Source: a virus
Direction: 5' to 3' (one strand)
DNA: 24,092 bases
Virus record (IMG/VR): IMGVR_UViG_3300025853_000645
Coordinates: 1-24,092 of that record
The stretch's first letter is position 1. The number at the start of each line of letters is the position of its first letter. Under the pieces are notes generated by a model, which had not been told where the DNA came from, ran no database searches, and saw nothing but the letters and a program-made list of their open reading frames with translations. A program made the position numbers and the translations under genes. Below are positions 2,189 through 14,797 of this stretch, in pieces.

Positions 2189-2264
2189 GCCTTGTCCTTG
2201 GAAACTGAAAGCAATCAGTAGATTGTATATATATAATATATATAAATATTATAATATTTAAATA

Positions 2265-2295
2265 TATTGTTTTTCTCTAAAAAAGAAAAACAATA
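2265..2295. other. AT-rich inverted repeat in the tail-fibre leader
   Basis: A 12-bp stem (TATTGTTTTTCT paired with AGAAAAACAATA) closes a 7-base loop. It lies between the leftward promoter (2345-2373) and the tail-fibre ATG, so it would be in the 5' untranslated leader. It could be an mRNA stability or translation element. Function unknown. Confidence 0.5.
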
Positions 2296-2344
2296 AATAA
2301 TTATTATAATAATTATAATTTAAATTATTATACTCTATATAAAT

Positions 2345-2373
2345 AAGATAACAGGTAAATTACAATCTGTCAA
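2345..2373 (-). promoter_or_regulatory. Leftward sigma70-like promoter for the tail-fibre/late operon
   Basis: On the minus strand the -35 is TTGACA (2373-2368), the spacer is exactly 17 bp, and the -10 is TATCTT (2350-2345; four of six consensus bases). It faces the tail-fibre gene and would give a leader of about 150 nt. The perfect -35 and optimal spacing make it a good candidate, though whether it is early or late is not visible. Confidence 0.6.
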
Positions 2374-2526
2374 CACTTTTTTCCCAATATCCCAAAATCC
2401 CATGATTTCTAGCAGATTTTTTTTAGTTGCAATGCATTATGAATGAACACCCGACACCCCCTGTGTACCCCAACAGCCGTCTGCCAGTAAATCGGACGAC
2501 CGTCCTATATGGCAATGTCCATCAGC

Positions 2527-3256
2527 ATATTAGTATATTCGCATATTCTAATATACTATCATCATTAGCATATTATAATATTCTAATATTCTTATGAACA
2601 CCAGTATTAGAATCTGCTAATATTCTAAATTAGCATATCAGTATATTCTAATATTTGTATGTTAGTGTTCACTAACTTACTAATATGGTGTAATGCTAAT
2701 ACTCTAATATTCGCACTGGCTAATATAAGCATTCCCTAATATAAACATTTGATTATATTAGTGTTTTATAATATTATTATATTGACCTGCGGTCGGCAGT
2801 TAGTTAGTAGTTACTAATATTATTATATAATCAATTACTAATATAAAGGTATATTAGTATATGGTGATATTCTAATGTAATTGTCTATAAGAATTTGCTA
2901 ATATTCTGATATTCTAATATGATTGTGGTGTATTAGAACACACTAATATAGGGTTATAATTGGTGTATTAGTATTTGCTTATATGCTAATTGGCATGGTT
3001 TTTGACTATCCACAGGTTATTAACAGCCTAATTTAGTGTTTGCTAATGTTCTAATATGGAGCCTTGTAATCGATTCTAAGCCGTTTTTTCTCAAAAAATA
3101 GGGGGGTGTAGGGTTTGGTATTACTTTTCCGAGAAGTCGCTAAACTAACAGGTTATCCACAGATTTATTCACATGTGGATAAGTTATTCACATTTTGTGG
3201 ATAACTTTTACATACCTTATATATACATGTCAGGGTATATTAGCATTCTCTAATAT
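2527..3256. repeat. CTAATAT / ATATTAG short-repeat array (iteron-like)
   Basis: CTAATAT starts at 2548, 2583, 2617, 2648, 2680, 2704, 2720, 2736, 2814, 2838, 2898, 2914, 2943, 3051 and 3250. The inverse ATATTAG starts at 2527, 2755, 2851 and 3237. Many one-mismatch variants lie between (for example GTATTAG, CTAATGT, CTAATAC). Some copies are spaced exactly 16 bp (2704/2720/2736; 2898/2914) and others about 31-35 bp (2548 to 2680). Only sporadic copies were noticed in the coding regions. It is most likely a multi-site protein-binding array for initiation, partition or repression. Confidence 0.8.
3153..3204. promoter_or_regulatory. Cluster of five DnaA-box matches
   Basis: Nine-mers matching TTATNCACA: TTATCCACA at 3153-3161 (+), TTATTCACA at 3165-3173 (+), TTATCCACA on the minus strand at 3174-3182, TTATTCACA at 3184-3192 (+), and TTATCCACA on the minus strand at 3196-3204. 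A one-mismatch box (CTATCCACA) lies at 3006-3014. Three are the exact strong R-box of E. coli oriC. This density in 52 bp is characteristic of chromosomal and plasmid origins. DnaA binding in this phage is inferred from the sequence. Confidence 0.75.
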
Positions 3257-3301: not shown

Positions 3302-3330
3302 TTGACAATCCCGAAACCCTCTTTTATATT
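3302..3330 (+). promoter_or_regulatory. Rightward early promoter P1
   Basis: The -35 is TTGACA (3302-3307), the spacer is 17 bp, and the -10 is TATATT (3325-3330; five of six). It lies about 55 bp upstream of the first rightward gene, as expected of a host sigma70 early promoter. Confidence 0.75.
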
Positions 3331-3358: not shown

Positions 3359-3372
3359 TGTTTAGAATATAA

Positions 3373-3388
3373 GGAAACACTAATATGA
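3373..3388 (+). promoter_or_regulatory. Ribosome site and start, copy 1 of an exact 16-bp repeat
   Basis: GGAAACACTAATATGA combines a GGA ribosome site, one CTAATAT repeat unit and the ATG of the first gene. An identical 16-mer recurs in frame at 3487-3502. Part of the CTAATAT unit is the start codon itself, so a protein bound to this motif could also affect expression here. Confidence 0.6.
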
Positions 3389-3678
3389 ACACTAAATACC
3401 CGGACCTAAGCAATACCTTCTTTTATGATGCGTACTGGTTTAACTTCCAAATGCGTGATAACTACAGCGCACCATCTACTCCATTAGGAAACACTAATAT
3501 GAGGACCTACTACTTTTTATTTGAACTAATTGACGGTAAATACCATTTCGCTTTTGGTGATTACAATAAAGACCTTGTAAAAGATGAGGCGGCATGCCTA
3601 GACAACAAAACCAAATTAGTGCGCGGTTGGGATGAAGAAACCGACATTAACGAAATTCTAGCAGACTTAAATAAGTAA
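3385..3678 (+). CDS. Early hypothetical protein, 97 aa
   Basis: First gene of the rightward early block, behind P1. No family recognised. The sequence is rich in aromatic residues (TFFYDAYWFNF, TYYFLFEL, YHFAFGDY) with an acidic C-terminus (RGWDEETDINEILADL), suggesting a small globular alpha/beta protein. The ATG at 3385 has a GGAAAC ribosome site. The same 16-bp start context recurs at codon 39 (ATG 3499), which would give a 59-aa product starting MRTYYFLFEL. Either or both starts may be used. Being first from the origin-proximal promoter, it is probably an immediate-early product. Confidence 0.7.
   Translation: MNTKYPDLSNTFFYDAYWFNFQMRDNYSAPSTPLGNTNMRTYYFLFELIDGKYHFAFGDYNKDLVKDEAACLDNKTKLVRGWDEETDINEILADLNK
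3487..3502 (+). repeat. Internal copy 2 of the 16-bp start context
   Basis: Exact repeat of GGAAACACTAATATGA (copy 1 at 3373-3388), inside the first gene and in the same frame, so its ATG at 3499 is a possible internal start at codon 39. It suggests either a nested short isoform or a 5' extension by duplication. Confidence 0.6.
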
Positions 3679-3694
3679 ATTAGGAGATACTAAA

Positions 3695-3979
3695 ATGGCT
3701 AAAAATATCCGAATCACTAAAGCTAACCAAATCGCAGTAAATGAGATTATCAGCGTTGATAAAGAAATGAGACAATTCGAAGATTGGCGCGACAATGCGC
3801 GAGAGCGTGGTGATGAGAAACTTGCTGAGCTCTGGCAGGGTCACTATAAATCAGAGTTACGTACATGGTCCGCTATGATTAACTTGCTCGCAAAAATGAA
3901 CAACCTTAGTTTTACCGATATGGTGATGTCAGATAATTATCACACTATGCAAGATATCGCAGACGCAAACCTAGATTAA
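3695..3979 (+). CDS. Early hypothetical protein, 94 aa, predicted helical
   Basis: Good AGGAG site before the ATG. No family recognised. The composition (ITKANQIAVNEIISVDKEMRQFEDWRDNARERGDEKLAELW...) suggests a mostly alpha-helical, charged protein without transmembrane segment or cysteine. It lies 16 bp behind the first gene and ends just before promoter P2, so it belongs to the first early transcript. Confidence 0.7.
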   Translation: MAKNIRITKANQIAVNEIISVDKEMRQFEDWRDNARERGDEKLAELWQGHYKSELRTWSAMINLLAKMNNLSFTDMVMSDNYHTMQDIADANLD

Positions 3980-3982
3980 CCA

Positions 3983-4011
3983 TTGACAGGGGCAGAAATG
4001 CCCCTTACAAT
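3983..4011 (+). promoter_or_regulatory. Early promoter P2 with a hairpin filling its spacer
   Basis: TTGACA (3983-3988), 17-bp spacer (3989-4005), TACAAT (4006-4011). The spacer is almost entirely an inverted repeat: GGGGCA, GAAA tetraloop, TGCCCC. As RNA from upstream transcription this would be a stable GNRA-loop hairpin that could end or pause transcripts of the preceding gene. As DNA it could be an operator between -35 and -10. The same design recurs at 6730-6758. Confidence 0.75.
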
Positions 4012-4037
4012 AAACTTACTTTCTAACTCAAAAGAGG

Positions 4038-4049
4038 CATTTAAAAATG
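4038..4049 (+). repeat. Start-proximal motif CATTTAAAAATG, copy 1
   Basis: A 12-bp string ending in the ATG of the ArdC/papain gene. It recurs exactly at 6782-6793 and 6943-6954, each time ending in a start codon and preceded by a GGA/GAGG ribosome site. It may be a conserved translation-start cassette. Confidence 0.6.
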
Positions 4050-4736
4050 TATAAGAATTTTCTTACAGGTATTGAATACACCAACAGCAATTGGGAAACC
4101 TTAGCAGAATCAGGGTTTACTAATCCTAACTTCCTAACATTCAAGCAAGCGCAAACAGCGGGCTTGAAAATCAAAAAAGGTTCAAAGGGTATCGAGCTAA
4201 AGCGCGTTGTTATCAAAAAACAGAAAGATAAAAACGGGGTTGAGGTTGAGAAAAAACTAATCAAAAAGTTTTATGTTTTCAACCTAGAGCAGACAGAAAA
4301 GTTTGAGGAAAAGCCGGTTGAGGTTGAGCACGTTTACCCTAAGCCCGCACCAGAAACAATCACTTTCGAGCACTGCGAAAAAGAAGCTATTGATATGGGC
4401 GAGGCAAACGATTGCACAGTAAAAGCCCTAGCCATTGCCGGAAATGTAGCTTATAAGAAAGCCCACGACTATATGCGCCAAGCGGGACGCAGAATGCGCC
4501 GAGGATTGCACACTGGAGCCATTGAAAAAGGCTTTAAACTAGCGGGCTTTAAGCTTGTAAAGGTTAAGCATACAGGCAAAACAGCGACAACAATCACGAA
4601 AGATTGCGCCAAATCAAAGCGTTATGTTGCTTACACCCGAAACCATATTTTAGCAATCACTAATGGACAGGTACAGGACTGGACAGAAAATCGTCGCCAC
4701 CGTATCGAAACATTATTCGAAGTAGTAAAAGCATAA
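4047..4736 (+). CDS. ArdC-N domain fused to a papain-like cysteine peptidase domain
   Basis: Start ATG 4047 with an AGAGG site. Residues about 20-90 resemble the ArdC N-terminal ssDNA-binding domain: NFLTFKQAQTAGLKIKKGSKG (about 28-48), then KKFYVFNLEQTEKF (73-86). Residues about 108-229 resemble the papain-like domain of small phage proteins, with NDCTVKALAIA (Cys123 at a helix start), RYVAYTRNHILAI (His200) and GQVQDW (Asp211), a plausible Cys-His-Asp triad. Classical ArdC proteins join this N-domain to a zinc metallopeptidase; here a cysteine-peptidase-like domain replaces it. ArdC-N domains occur in antirestriction proteins and in phage or plasmid polyvalent proteins delivered early. A counter-defence or host-protein-processing role is inferred from domains and early position behind P2. 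Activity is not shown. Confidence 0.65.
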   Translation: MYKNFLTGIEYTNSNWETLAESGFTNPNFLTFKQAQTAGLKIKKGSKGIELKRVVIKKQKDKNGVEVEKKLIKKFYVFNLEQTEKFEEKPVEVEHVYPKPAPETITFEHCEKEAIDMGEANDCTVKALAIAGNVAYKKAHDYMRQAGRRMRRGLHTGAIEKGFKLAGFKLVKVKHTGKTATTITKDCAKSKRYVAYTRNHILAITNGQVQDWTENRRHRIETLFEVVKA

Positions 4737-4742
4737 TTAAAC

Positions 4743-4760
4743 GGGGGCAGCAATGCCCCC
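4743..4760 (+). other. GGGGGCA hairpin with GNRA loop between genes
   Basis: GGGGGCA, loop GCAA, TGCCCCC. It falls between the ArdC/papain gene and the next gene. No U-run follows, so it is an inefficient terminator at best. It may protect or separate mRNAs. It belongs to the GGGGC hairpin family of this region. Confidence 0.6.
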
Positions 4761-4779
4761 ATAAATGAGGATTAATAAA

Positions 4780-5061
4780 ATGAAATTAGCAGATATTGAA
4801 AAAATTGTTTTTGCAAGTAAAAATGAAATTGGTTTTGCCCCTGAAGCGATTGATGGTGGATATAGTGAGCGCCCAGTTTCTCATTATGAAATTTATGTTG
4901 ACGATTACAGTAGCACAAACACAAAATATATCCCTAGATTTATTAGTGTTTTTGATTGTTATGATGGTTGGGATTCTATGGATTATGAGGTAGGTGATGG
5001 CAAATATGATACCTACGCAGAAGCGTTATTTGCTTGCTATCTTGAAATTAAATGTAGTTAA
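4780..5061 (+). CDS. Early hypothetical acidic protein, 93 aa
   Basis: The start is placed at ATG 4780 (MKLADIEK), which has AGGA nine bases upstream; an in-frame ATG at 4765 lacks a site and overlaps the hairpin. No family recognised. Tyrosine- and aspartate-rich (YEIYVDDYSS, VFDCYDGWDSMDYEVGDGKYDTY), strongly acidic, soluble. Last gene of the first early block, directly before the terminator at 5077-5102. Confidence 0.7.
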   Translation: MKLADIEKIVFASKNEIGFAPEAIDGGYSERPVSHYEIYVDDYSSTNTKYIPRFISVFDCYDGWDSMDYEVGDGKYDTYAEALFACYLEIKCS

Positions 5062-5397
5062 TAATTAAATTCTAATATAGGGGCATAAGCCCCTATTTTT
5101 TTGTTTGCGTATATTAGAATATTCTAATATAATAATATACTATCATAATACTATCACAAATTAGCATTTGCTTATATTAGAATTTCCTTATATACTAATG
5201 CTGAGTATATTAGCATATTATTATATACCAATATGCCAATACAATCTATATTAGAATCTACTAATATGCTAACATATAAATAATTTATGTGAGGTATAAA
5301 TATTTTCGTATAGTAATGTAGGGTTTTCCCCTATATACCACAACCTAGAAATATATATACTTATAGTCACAAACTAACTGAACAGGAGCGTAAGCGA
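5062..5397. repeat. Noncoding 336-bp spacer with second CTAATAT/ATATTAG island
   Basis: No gene. CTAATAT starts at 5072, 5124 and 5261; ATATTAG starts at 5111, 5174, 5207 and 5248. At 5111-5130 the units form a perfect 20-bp palindrome, ATATTAGAATATTCTAATAT. The spacer also holds the terminator at 5077-5102, a small TAGGG/CCCTA hairpin (5319-5333) and AT-rich sequence that may include the promoter for the following mini-genes. With the array at 2527-3256 it brackets the first early gene block. Confidence 0.75.
5077..5102 (+). terminator. Rho-independent terminator of the first early block
   Basis: Stem ATAGGGGC (5077-5084), loop ATAA, GCCCCTAT (5089-5096), followed directly by six T residues. 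Canonical intrinsic terminator 15 bp after the stop at 5061. Overlaps the last bases of a CTAATAT unit. Confidence 0.85.
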
Positions 5398-11782: not shown

Positions 11783-11928
11783 TGTTTTTTGAAATTTATC
11801 AGATTGTGATTTTGTTAGGCGTGTTCGGATACGGACTACGATATGTATATCAACAGGGCTATTATCAAGCATGTTATGAAGTGGCTAATAAAATCATCAT
11901 AGTGACAGCAGAGGATGAAGATGAATAG
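11782..11928 (+). CDS. Predicted 48-aa membrane mini-protein
   Basis: Its ATG shares the last A of the helicase stop, and its 3' end overlaps the start of the polymerase gene, so it is held by both neighbours. One hydrophobic segment (IYQIVILLGVFGYGL, about residues 5-19) followed by a tyrosine-rich stretch and an acidic tail (TAEDEDE). Not recognised. A membrane anchor within a replication operon is noteworthy, but the function is unknown. Confidence 0.55.
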   Translation: MFFEIYQIVILLGVFGYGLRYVYQQGYYQACYEVANKIIIVTAEDEDE

Positions 11929-13084
11929 GTTATTGTTTCTCGACACAGAGACAACTATCTACAACACAGGAGATCAGAGCGTTGGAAACTTTAGTGCAAA
12001 CCCACACCATGCTGATAACCGTATTGTTTATACTGGTTGGGCATTTGATAATCGACAAGTACACTGGTTGAAGGGTGTACCTGACTTCTTTGAGAATCCG
12101 CCGCAAGCTTTGATTTGTCAGAACATTGCATTCGACTTGCTGTACTTGTTACATGACAAGCAGTATGGCGATGATTGGCGAGAGTGGACACGCAAAGGAT
12201 TCATTTGGGATACGATGTTGGCGGAATACCTAATTACAGGACAGGACACAACACGAGGTCATTTGTCATTAGACTACATGTCACAGAAGTATGGTGGCAC
12301 GTTGAAAGACAGCCGTATGAAAGAATACTGGGAGAACGGTGTGTCTACTGAGGACATTCCAGAAGAAGAAATTGTACCTTATCTGATTGGTGACGTGGAA
12401 AATTTACGCATCATCTATAATGCACAGCGTAAAATTGTAGATGAGATGGGAATGTTTGAATTGGTGGTTAGTCAGATGCAAGCTAGACTTGCTACGATTA
12501 TGATGGAGTATAATGGCATGAGCTTTGACCTGAAGTTAGCACACGAAGAGAAGCTTAAACTACTACCACAGCACGAGGCAGTGACACAAGAGGTCGTGGA
12601 ACTGATGGCTAGACGTACAGGATGTGATGTTGAAGAACTGAATCCAAACTCAACACAACAGCTATCAGCTGTATTGTTCGGAACTGAGTTTAAGGTGAAG
12701 CGTGATATGCCTGTAGTAGATGAGGAAGGTAATCCTGTTATTTACAAGTCAGGTAAACGTAAGGGTGAGCAAAAGACAAAGAAACAGGACATCATCATTC
12801 AACCTGAAGGTATCTTTCGACATACAAAGAAATTGAATGATCGTGGCATTCATCCTGTAGGTGACGATGTGCTACGTAAACTTGAGCATCCTATCCTTTC
12901 AAAGGTGTTAAAGATGCGGGAACTGACTAAACAGATTAGTACGTATTTCGATGGCTACTCTAATCTTGTATGGTCAGACGGATTGATACATGGCAACCTA
13001 AACCATTGTCAGACAGCAACAGGTAGATTGAGCAGCAGCAATCCCAATCTACAGAATATTAGTAATAAGGAGAGCGAGGCATGA
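11921..13084 (+). CDS. Family-A DNA polymerase, N-terminal polypeptide (3'-5' exonuclease, thumb, TGR motif)
   Basis: Start at ATG 11921 (MNRLLFLDTETT) with AGAGG six bases upstream. The proofreading domain has all three motifs: D8-x-E10, NIAFD (D72) and YLIGD (Y154/D158). The thumb follows, then TATGRLSSSNPNLQNI (365-380), normally just before palm motif A. The chain stops seven residues later (SNKESEA), with TGA overlapping the next ATG. It therefore lacks motifs A, B and C, which are in a separate gene at 13916-14797. The two parts total 680 residues, close to T7 gp5 (704). The break falls in a loop before IKKCF, suggesting a two-subunit polymerase rather than decay. Confidence 0.88.
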   Translation: MNRLLFLDTETTIYNTGDQSVGNFSANPHHADNRIVYTGWAFDNRQVHWLKGVPDFFENPPQALICQNIAFDLLYLLHDKQYGDDWREWTRKGFIWDTMLAEYLITGQDTTRGHLSLDYMSQKYGGTLKDSRMKEYWENGVSTEDIPEEEIVPYLIGDVENLRIIYNAQRKIVDEMGMFELVVSQMQARLATIMMEYNGMSFDLKLAHEEKLKLLPQHEAVTQEVVELMARRTGCDVEELNPNSTQQLSAVLFGTEFKVKRDMPVVDEEGNPVIYKSGKRKGEQKTKKQDIIIQPEGIFRHTKKLNDRGIHPVGDDVLRKLEHPILSKVLKMRELTKQISTYFDGYSNLVWSDGLIHGNLNHCQTATGRLSSSNPNLQNISNKESEA

Positions 13085-13389
13085 AGTGCAAAGCATGCGG
13101 TGCGACAGTGAATACGTCTCGTTGGATGTATTTTGCAGATGAATCAGAACAGCCTAGACCTAAGAAGAAACAGACCGAGGAGTTATGCTCTCTCTGTTTA
13201 GGTGAGGCTAAGACAGCATACTATGAAATGTTTGACAAAGACCCGCAAGTCATTGAATTTGAATGTAAAAACATGTGGAAAGAGGGGTTAAAACAGGAAG
13301 GTGATCCATTATACATCTTGACAAACGGTGATGAAGATGCTACCTTATTAATAGACCTAGAGAACTTCTCTCTCGGAACTGAGGAATAA
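13081..13389 (+). CDS. Small zinc-finger-like protein, 102 aa, inside the split polymerase locus
   Basis: ATGA overlap with the end of the polymerase N-part. Two CxxC pairs (MKCKACGA and ELCSLCLGEA) form a probable zinc-binding module like those of small phage MKC.AC proteins; the C-terminal half is acidic. No nuclease motif (no HNH, GIY-YIG or LAGLIDADG) is visible, so it is not an obvious homing endonuclease. Function unknown; it might bind DNA or polymerase. Confidence 0.7.
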   Translation: MKCKACGATVNTSRWMYFADESEQPRPKKKQTEELCSLCLGEAKTAYYEMFDKDPQVIEFECKNMWKEGLKQEGDPLYILTNGDEDATLLIDLENFSLGTEE

Positions 13390-13390
13390 C

Positions 13391-13624
13391 ATGATTAAAC
13401 AGGGAATCATTAAAAGAATTCATGTGAATCAGCACAACATTCGTCATAATAGCAAACATGATGACAAGCTTCCTGTACTTACTGTGAAAACAAGTAAAGA
13501 AAATATCAAGTGTGATAAAGTTGTTATTCATGGTAGCAGTGAAATTGTGTACTCACCAGATAAGCCATTAGCATGCGGTGCTAAGGTATGGATTGAAACC
13601 ACAGCAGAGGTTGATACGGAATGA
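13391..13624 (+). CDS. Conserved phage hypothetical protein, 77 aa
   Basis: Sequence pattern KRIHVNQHNIRHNSK, LPVLTVKTSKEN, VYSPDKPLACGAKVWIETTA. I recognise this as a recurring phage family of unknown function from memory; no enzymatic motif is visible. Beta-rich, with two cysteines. Starts 1 bp after the zinc-finger gene stop and ends in an ATGA overlap. Second of three genes between the polymerase halves. Confidence 0.7.
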   Translation: MIKQGIIKRIHVNQHNIRHNSKHDDKLPVLTVKTSKENIKCDKVVIHGSSEIVYSPDKPLACGAKVWIETTAEVDTE

Positions 13625-13926
13625 TGAAGAATAAATGGGGTGTTGATAGGTTTGATCTTGAAACTGCTATGATGAAAGTAGCTATGACACAAGATGACAT
13701 CATGCTAATAGCAGAAACAGCGTACAATGACGATTGGAATGCAGACAAGACTATGAATGCTTGGATTGGATTAGCACACTTACTAGAAGCTCGCACACTT
13801 AAACAAGAAGTGATATTTTCTAAGCTATTCGAGATAGATGGATACGAACCTCATAATTGGGATGAGGATAGGATGGATATTATCGGCAGGAACGGTAACA
13901 ACGGCGAACATTACAATGACGATTAA
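13621..13926 (+). CDS. Hypothetical acidic protein, 101 aa, inside the split polymerase locus
   Basis: Starts within an ATGATG overlapping the previous stop. Helical, acidic: RFDLETAMMKVAMTQDDIMLIAETAYNDDW, WIGLAHLLEARTLKQEVIFSKLF, ending in an Asn/Asp/Gly-rich tail. Not recognised. Its last 11 bp overlap the polymerase C-part start (ATG 13916), so it and the catalytic half are probably translated together. Confidence 0.65.
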   Translation: MMKNKWGVDRFDLETAMMKVAMTQDDIMLIAETAYNDDWNADKTMNAWIGLAHLLEARTLKQEVIFSKLFEIDGYEPHNWDEDRMDIIGRNGNNGEHYNDD

Positions 13927-14797
13927 TATCAAGAAATGTTTTAAGTCTAGGTGGACTGACGGCTTTATTGTAGAAGCCGACTTTTCGCAGCTTGAGGTGG
14001 TAGGAGCTGCAATTGTATCAGGTGACAAGAACATGAAGCAGGATTTGCTAGATGGTATTGACAGCCACAGCCAATCAGCAGCATGGCTTAATCCTAAATA
14101 CAGCTACGAGGAAATCTTAGCAGGGTATAAGGCAGAGGATAGCTTCTTCACAAAGCTACGTAAGAATGCCAAAGGACCTCGCTTTGAACTACAATATGGT
14201 GCAGGTGCTAAATCTATTGCAGAGAATAACAACCTGACTAAAGATGAGGCACAGGGATTCATTGATAGATATTATGAACGCTATTCAATGTTGAAAGACT
14301 TTCAGAACAAAGTAATGCAGGAGGTAGATGAGAGCTTACAGCCAATTGATGAGTATTACAGTGGACACCAAGTCCAACAAGGAACATATAAATCTATAAC
14401 GGGTAGACGCTACACATTTAAACAACAGAAAGCCCCTAAGTTTTTACAAGACAGAGGTGTGATGTTGTCAATTAGCCCTACTCAAATTGCAAACTATCCG
14501 ATGCAAGGCTTTGCAACAGGTGACATCGTGCCAGAGACATTAGGCAGACTACACAGAGCAATATCAGCAGACGATCAGTTATGGAATAAGTGCTTACCAA
14601 TTAATACTGTACATGACAGTGTGATATTTGATGTACATGAGAGTGTATTGAAACGTGCAGGACTAATCATCCGAGACACAATGCAAGCAGCTCCTAAGTG
14701 GATGAAGACACGATTTGGTGTTGACATTGACTTACCATTGAATGTTGATGTAGAGTATGGTAAAGATTGGAACAGCCTTACCAAACTAGAGGTATAG
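13916..14797 (+). CDS. Family-A DNA polymerase, C-terminal polypeptide (palm/fingers)
   Basis: Carries the polymerase active site. Motif A is VEADFSQLE (Asp22). The O-helix is RKNAKGPRFELQYG, with R82, K86, F90 and Y94 lining up with T7 R518, K522, Y526 and Y530. Motif C is VHDSV (D234). F90 at the T7 Y526 position matches E. coli Pol I and other enzymes that discriminate against dideoxynucleotides. Homology begins at IKKCF, directly following where the N-part stops. Start taken as ATG 13916 (MTINIKKCF), with only a weak GGCGA site; an in-frame ATG at 13838 would add 26 non-family residues. It must assemble with the N-part for a full polymerase. Confidence 0.85.
   Translation: MTINIKKCFKSRWTDGFIVEADFSQLEVVGAAIVSGDKNMKQDLLDGIDSHSQSAAWLNPKYSYEEILAGYKAEDSFFTKLRKNAKGPRFELQYGAGAKSIAENNNLTKDEAQGFIDRYYERYSMLKDFQNKVMQEVDESLQPIDEYYSGHQVQQGTYKSITGRRYTFKQQKAPKFLQDRGVMLSISPTQIANYPMQGFATGDIVPETLGRLHRAISADDQLWNKCLPINTVHDSVIFDVHESVLKRAGLIIRDTMQAAPKWMKTRFGVDIDLPLNVDVEYGKDWNSLTKLEV

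What the first reader, a model, noticed from the sequence alone, without database searches (positions are those of the whole stretch)
2527..3256. Undescribed CTAATAT iteron-like array
Nineteen exact CTAATAT/ATATTAG units in about 730 bp (15 forward, 4 inverse), plus a unit forming the first gene's start and many one-mismatch variants. Units sit 16, 24 and about 32 bp apart, roughly multiples of 8 and partly of the DNA helical repeat. Far above what base composition predicts, and nearly absent from coding DNA. Candidate roles: initiator iterons, a partition/centromere site, or operators for a silencer. No known Rep or ParB is encoded in the window, so the binding protein would be novel or host-derived.
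Basis: seen in the sequence. Interest (0 to 1): 0.75.

Follow-up and report, generated by a model that had tools for sequence, protein, structure and literature searches.

The report
Palindromic operator arrays in marine phages
A phage related to the cholera phage ICP2 carries two dense clusters of about 27 copies of a 20-letter palindromic protein-binding site between its gene blocks; the same clusters occur in several otherwise mostly unrelated uncultured phages, and the same site sits in front of ArsR-type regulator genes in bacteria, so they look like switchboards read by a shared, not yet identified protein.

Summary
In detail: 19 exact CTAATAT/ATATTAG units lie in 2527-3256 (about 0.9 in shuffles), and a second array at 5103-5275 was missed. 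The 7-mer is half of a 20-bp palindrome, ATATTAG-NANNTN-CTAATAT (gap 6 only), laid partly in an 8-bp register. A profile built from other phages finds 27 sites in the window (control 0.3). The same arrays occur in at least five IMG/VR phage groups with mostly non-homologous genes, usually in non-coding DNA between gene blocks and near sigma-70 promoters. Named phages tested (ICP2, KIT05, CRP-5 and others) lack them. No protein common to the array phages was found. In bacterial chromosomes, twin copies stand directly before ArsR/SmtB-family genes (Pseudoalteromonas BigR-like, Bacillales metal regulators), so an ArsR-type dimer is the best-supported kind of binder; none is encoded in the array phages searched. 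Array A also flanks five DnaA boxes in 52 bp. A related phage has DnaA boxes beside an array of a different palindrome (GTCTTATATAAGAC). Best reading: dispersed operators for a dimeric regulator, with array A inside a probable DnaA-dependent origin/promoter region. Binder and effect are inferred, not shown.

The parts
2519..3256 (.). Array A: about 19-20 palindromic sites (consensus ATATTAG-NANNTN-CTAATAT, one arm often degenerate), partly in tandem 8-bp register; dense part 2519-2984, then sparse, with one perfect palindrome at 3237-3256
2604..2623 (.). Strong site GTATTAGAATCTGCTAATAT (core matches the consensus exactly)
3237..3256 (.). Perfect-arm palindrome ATATTAGCATTCTCTAATAT, 45 bp upstream of the -35 box of the rightward promoter
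5103..5275 (.). Array B: about 7 palindromic sites including perfect-arm palindromes 5111-5130 and 5248-5267; between a terminator and the next operon
3153..3204 (.). Cluster of five DnaA boxes (TTATCCACA or TTATTCACA, both orientations)
   Evidence: 6 in the window, 0.97 expected, five of them in 52 bp
3006..3026 (+). Degenerate DnaA-box-like element CTATCCACAGGTTATTAACAG, nearly repeated beside the array of phage G001 as CATCCACAGGTTACTAACAG
   Evidence: read
2222..2345 (.). Very AT-rich stretch between the tail-fibre gene and array A (candidate unwinding region)
3302..3330 (+). Sigma-70-like promoter TTGACA-17-TATATT (11 of 12) for the rightward early genes
2345..2373 (-). Sigma-70-like promoter TTGACA-17-TATCTT (10 of 12) towards the tail-fibre gene
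5077..5096 (+). Terminator-like hairpin followed by a T run, just before array B
3385..5061 (+). First early gene block (small ORFs and a protein with an ArdC N-terminal domain), bracketed by arrays A and B

Best explanation
The arrays are clusters of operators. A dimeric DNA-binding protein, most likely of winged-helix ArsR/SmtB type, binds the 20-bp palindrome ATATTAG-NANNTN-CTAATAT and, because many sites overlap in an 8-bp or 16-bp register, loads co-operatively over array A (between the leftward tail-fibre gene and the rightward early genes) and array B (between a terminator and the next early operon), controlling transcription from the neighbouring host-type sigma-70 promoters. In this phage array A lies in the same non-coding region as a DnaA-box cluster and an AT-rich stretch, so it probably also touches initiation of replication. 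Shown: the sites, their geometry, their recurrence in other phages, their identity with sites in front of bacterial arsR-family genes. Inferred: the protein, whether it comes from the host or the phage, and whether it represses or activates.
For: Palindrome specific for gap 6 and far above shuffles. A profile from other phages finds 27 sites in the window against 0.3 +/- 0.7 with column-permuted profiles. Mismatches in one arm are rarely mirrored in the other (169 one-arm deviations, 8 compensated pairs, 95 sites), so sequence rather than hairpin is selected. Several clusters per genome: window A and B, L132 at about 0.8-1.3 and 2.5-2.9 kb, G008 at 24.4, 26.1-26.5, 27.3 and 27.8 kb. Sigma-70 promoters with 10-12 of 12 matches stand beside clusters in most lineages, operators usually upstream of the -35 box or over the start. 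Chromosomal twin copies scoring 18.7-25.2 under the phage profile stand directly before ArsR/SmtB genes in Pseudoalteromonas, Pseudocolwellia and four Bacillales, and one gene away in an epsilonproteobacterium; in 369 gammaproteobacterial genomes the palindrome is found in 58, the reversed control in 3.
Against: No ArsR-like ORF in the array phages and no protein family shared by all of them, so the binder is unnamed. Only 2 of 30 single chromosomal sites are next to an arsR gene, so other proteins may use the same palindrome. Chromosomes carry 1-2 sites, never such arrays. No transcription or binding data. The dense part of array A is more than 300 bp from the nearest rightward promoter, further than ordinary repressor operators.
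Confidence: 0.5

Rival explanations
1. Array A is a replication origin whose palindromes are iterons for a phage initiator (lambda O-like, each iteron a hyphenated dyad bound by a dimer), with DnaA boxes and an AT-rich unwinding stretch; array B is a secondary or incompatibility site.
For: Five DnaA boxes in 52 bp, AT-rich 2222-2345, and a change of GC skew from -0.25 to +0.39 inside non-coding array A near 2750. Phage G001 has DnaA boxes beside the same palindromes. Phage L232, whose tail-fibre N terminus is 47% identical, has two DnaA boxes plus four copies of another palindrome, GTCTTATATAAGAC, at the same place: architecture kept, motif exchanged, as in co-evolving initiator/iteron pairs.
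Against: G002, G003, G008/G010, L131 and L132 have the palindrome arrays but no clustered DnaA boxes. Sites form several clusters per genome at gene-block boundaries. No initiator found in the window; replication genes are DnaB-like helicase, Toprim primase and Pol A.
Confidence: 0.27
2. The arrays recruit or titrate a host regulator: many copies of a host ArsR-type (BigR/HlyU-like) operator sponge the repressor or hand phage promoters to the host's sulfide/redox or metal state.
For: Chromosomal twin operators of the same sequence before arsR-family genes; array present in phages that share few genes; no common phage protein.
Against: Host unknown; no phage with arrays has a cultured host; single chromosomal sites mostly not near arsR.
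Confidence: 0.15
3. Partition/centromere site (parS-like) of a plasmid-like phage.
For: Dense, partly tandem 8-bp register arrays resemble in form sites bound by ribbon-helix-helix or ParB proteins.
Against: No ParA/ParB in the window; several clusters next to promoters; no match to plasmids.
Confidence: 0.04
4. RNA hairpins or compositional artefact of AT-rich spacer DNA.
For: Region is 72-78% A+T and palindromes could form 7-bp stems.
Against: Shuffles of the same DNA give 0.7 sites against 19; arms do not covary; no Rfam match; same motif in GC-rich phages G007 and G011, GC 0.57 and 0.54.
Confidence: 0.02

Closest known systems
ArsR/SmtB-family operators (BigR/SqrR/YgaV/HlyU and metal-sensor boxes)
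   Same: Same 20-bp AT-rich palindrome, found in twin copies directly upstream of ArsR-family genes in several phyla.
   Different: One or two sites per chromosome and next to the regulator gene; here about 27 sites, in an 8-bp register, in phages without a detectable ArsR gene.
Lambda-type replication origins (O iterons) and P1/plasmid origins with iterons, DnaA boxes and AT-rich stretch
   Same: Repeated dyad sites next to DnaA boxes and an AT-rich stretch in non-coding DNA (array A; from general knowledge of those origins).
   Different: No initiator found; several clusters; most array phages lack DnaA boxes; sites spread over about 730 bp.
Repressor operator arrays of phages (P1 C1 sites, mycobacteriophage L5 stoperators; general knowledge)
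   Same: Many operators for one protein dispersed at gene boundaries.
   Different: Symmetric palindromes clustered in dense overlapping arrays; shared by phages of different gene content; no repressor or integrase identified.
MetJ met-box arrays (8-bp tandem boxes; general knowledge)
   Same: 8-bp register of half-palindromic boxes, co-operative loading expected.
   Different: Sequence unrelated (ATTAGNAT-type against AGACGTCT); no MetJ-like protein found.
Control region of Vibrio phage ICP2 (Zobellviridae)
   Same: Same place: long non-coding region between tail fibre and early genes with sigma-70 promoters.
   Different: No palindrome sites and no clustered DnaA boxes there.

Membership tests
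ArsR/SmtB-type operator | Sequence matches operators located at arsR-family genes | tested here: met
   Twin chromosomal sites score 18.7-25.2 under the phage profile and adjoin genes passing the NCBIfam ArsR/SmtB cut-off
ArsR/SmtB-type operator | Cognate ArsR-family gene encoded next to the sites or in the same genome | tested here: not met
   hmmsearch of 2035 ORFs of window and array phages, best E = 0.89; records are fragments, the host was not tested
ArsR/SmtB-type operator | Binding by an ArsR-family dimer | not testable with these tools
   needs EMSA or footprint
Replication origin with iterons | DnaA boxes and AT-rich stretch beside the repeats | tested here: met
   five boxes at 3153-3204, AT-rich 2222-2345
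Replication origin with iterons | Same association in other carriers of the repeats | tested here: inconclusive
   met in G001, and with another palindrome in L232; not met in G002, G003, G008, G010, L131, L132
Replication origin with iterons | Cognate initiator gene nearby | tested here: not met
   no initiator among the ORFs tested; small proteins without any family remain possible
Replication origin with iterons | Repeats in one orientation (direct repeats) | tested here: not met
   no significant polarity in any array, all p > 0.06
Partition site (parS) | ParA/ParB or other cognate pair encoded | tested here: not met
   only 24 kb of the phage is held
Zobellviridae (the phage) | Replication proteins and gene order like ICP2 | tested here: met
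   helicase 41%, primase 38% to ICP2; tail fibre (-), non-coding region, early genes (+); formal classification not tested, virion genes mostly missing

The most novel reading that the evidence does not exclude
A set of marine short-tailed phages has independently acquired dense arrays of a host ArsR-type (sulfide/redox- or metal-sensing) operator, so that the host's own stress regulator, loading co-operatively on tens of sites, times or silences phage transcription, or is itself titrated away from the host.
Probability: 0.15. Interest if true: 0.82.

Novelty: new variant of a known kind. Interest (0 to 1): 0.52.

Why it matters
Arrays of one operator shared by phages with different gene sets suggest a common control signal, possibly a host regulator, acting on uncultured marine phages. 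The case is directly testable with a few DNA fragments and known ArsR proteins, and the DnaA-box cluster points to a mappable origin of replication in a group of lytic phages where I found no described origin in the literature searched.

Tried and rejected
Hairpin/RNA reading: arms do not covary, no Rfam family. Helical phasing: weak. Polarity of the array: not significant. Compositional artefact: refuted by region-specific shuffles. BLAST hit MW202697 to 2222-2472: AT-rich spacer only, scattered sites, no array. Contig L103: palindromes are part of a 42-bp protein-coding repeat. Pseudoalteromonas phage Slicky01 hit: no site above threshold. Named relatives or terminase/gp88-like neighbours ICP2, Vibrio 1.262.O, KIT05, Greip, CRP-5, H4/4: zero sites; Baldr three scattered ones. 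Plasmids: no match. A large host regulon: chromosomes hold only 1-2 sites. General link of all chromosomal sites to arsR: only 2 of 30, so the ArsR link rests on the twin operators. Shared phage-encoded binder: none by blastp or phmmer. Relatives of the first early ORFs: none. Literature for an exact ArsR/BigR box with this sequence or a phage with CTAATAT operators: none found in the open library. Structure prediction was not run: the candidate small proteins have no relatives for an alignment.

Full report
1. What is there. The window is a 24,092-base IMG/VR virus record, a fragment of a short-tailed phage whose replication genes resemble Vibrio phage ICP2 of the Zobellviridae (helicase 41%, primase 38%). 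A 1.2-kb non-coding region separates the leftward tail-fibre gene (2-2188) from rightward early genes (from 3385). In it, 19 exact CTAATAT/ATATTAG units lie in 2527-3256, exactly as reported, against about 0.9 in shuffles of the same region.

2. The real unit. Counting pairs of arms at every gap shows that only ATATTAG-N6-CTAATAT is strongly over-represented: 19 sites with at least 11 of 14 matches in array A and 7 in array B, against about 0.6-0.7 in shuffles. Inside the spacer A and T are fixed at positions 2 and 5, giving ATATTAG-NANNTN-CTAATAT (profile). Because the motif carries AnnT every 8 bp, sites overlap in tandem with an 8-bp register (autocorrelation z = 8.0 at lag 8), which explains the 16, 24 and 32-bp spacings. 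One-arm deviations outnumber compensated ones (169 against 8 in 95 sites): a protein reads the sequence, no hairpin is selected. There is no significant orientation bias and no clear helical phasing.

3. Other phages. Pattern scans of IMG/VR found the same arrays in other contigs: L036/G001, L052/G002, L067/G003, the G008/G010/L129/L131/L135-L137 group with L132/L139, and L238/L239/L242; sparser cases lie in the GC-rich G007 and G011. The reversed-pattern control is nearly empty. A profile made from the other phages alone finds 27 sites in the window, against 0.3 +/- 0.7 for column-permuted profiles. These phages share only parts of their genes: the window shares RNR, exonuclease, DUF3310 and several small genes with G001; G002, G003 and G008 share structural genes; no protein is common to all. 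ICP2, Vibrio 1.262.O, KIT05, Greip, CRP-5 and H4/4 have no site. The arrays therefore do not follow phage descent. Most lie in non-coding DNA between divergent gene blocks or before the terminase gene, near sigma-70 promoters with up to 12 of 12 matches.

4. Bacterial chromosomes. A scan of 84,980 genomes for two close palindromes gave no phage-like array of this motif, but twin copies stand directly before ArsR/SmtB-family genes in Pseudoalteromonas (BigR-like, with DUF2892-like and rhodanese-like genes beside it), Pseudocolwellia and four Bacillales (with heavy-metal ATPase-like genes in the loci), and near one in an epsilonproteobacterium; all tested regulator proteins pass the NCBIfam ArsR/SmtB cut-off. 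The DUF2892, rhodanese and ATPase names are my reading of the sequences, not a database result. Single sites are widespread in Gammaproteobacteria (58 of 369 genomes, reversed control 3 of 369), but only 2 of 30 adjoin an arsR gene, so other users of the palindrome exist. No ArsR-like ORF is encoded in the array phages. An ArsR-type dimer is thus the best-supported kind of binder, and the host its likeliest source, but this is inference.

5. Origin features. Between array A and the early promoter lie five DnaA boxes in 52 bp (3153-3204; six in the whole window, one expected), and a degenerate sixth at 3006. G001 has two or three DnaA boxes beside its array. Phage L232, related in the tail-fibre N terminus, has two DnaA boxes and, instead of ATATTAG sites, four copies of GTCTTATATAAGAC spaced 33, 23 and 23 bp at the same place. 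The GC skew of the non-coding DNA changes sign near 2750 (weak, few G and C). This makes the region a candidate DnaA-dependent origin and shows that the palindrome can be exchanged while the architecture stays. The remaining array lineages lack DnaA-box clusters, so the palindromes are not tied to DnaA.

6. Verdict. Most likely the arrays are dispersed operators, occupied co-operatively by a dimeric regulator that controls early and neighbouring gene blocks, array A being embedded in an origin/promoter region (0.5). Iterons of an unknown initiator (0.27) and a host-regulator sponge or sensor (0.15, which overlaps with the first) remain open. Operator arrays in phages are a known kind; what is new is this palindrome, its 8-bp-register arrays, their sharing by phages of different gene content and their identity with sites in front of ArsR-family genes.

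Noticed in passing
window 3153-3204: Five DnaA boxes in 52 bp in a virulent-looking podophage: a candidate DnaA-dependent replication origin.
   Followed up: partly
L232:5256-5498: Related phage with two DnaA boxes and four copies of a different palindrome, GTCTTATATAAGAC, at the homologous place.
   Followed up: partly
window 11915-14797: Family A DNA polymerase is split into two ORFs (exonuclease plus start of the polymerase domain, and the rest), with three small ORFs between them; one of these (13621-13926) has a 66% identical homologue in G001 away from its intact polymerase, and no intron family is found by Rfam.
   Followed up: partly
window 3370-3388 and 3484-3502: Near-identical leader repeat GGAAACACTAATATGA at two start codons; the second (3499) may be the true start of the first early gene.
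   Followed up: no
G008 (24.4-28 kb and 62.2-64.4 kb): The 64-kb contig contains two 94-98% similar copies of the same region about 37.8 kb apart, suggesting that two strains of a roughly 38-kb phage were joined in assembly.
   Followed up: no
window 4047-4736: Early protein with an ArdC N-terminal (anti-restriction) domain fused to another phage domain (phrog_3754).
   Followed up: no
L205 and L222: The palindrome also lies upstream of RND-efflux-adaptor-like genes in two gammaproteobacteria, and between a QueA-like gene and a divergent gene in two others (L216, L217): an undescribed chromosomal regulon.
   Followed up: no
L036:234-830, L067:12679-13272, L139:3597-4187: A conserved cysteine-containing protein of about 200 aa lies near the arrays in three array phages, with homologues in Pelagibacter phage Greip and Roseobacter phage CRP-5, which have no arrays.
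   Followed up: partly
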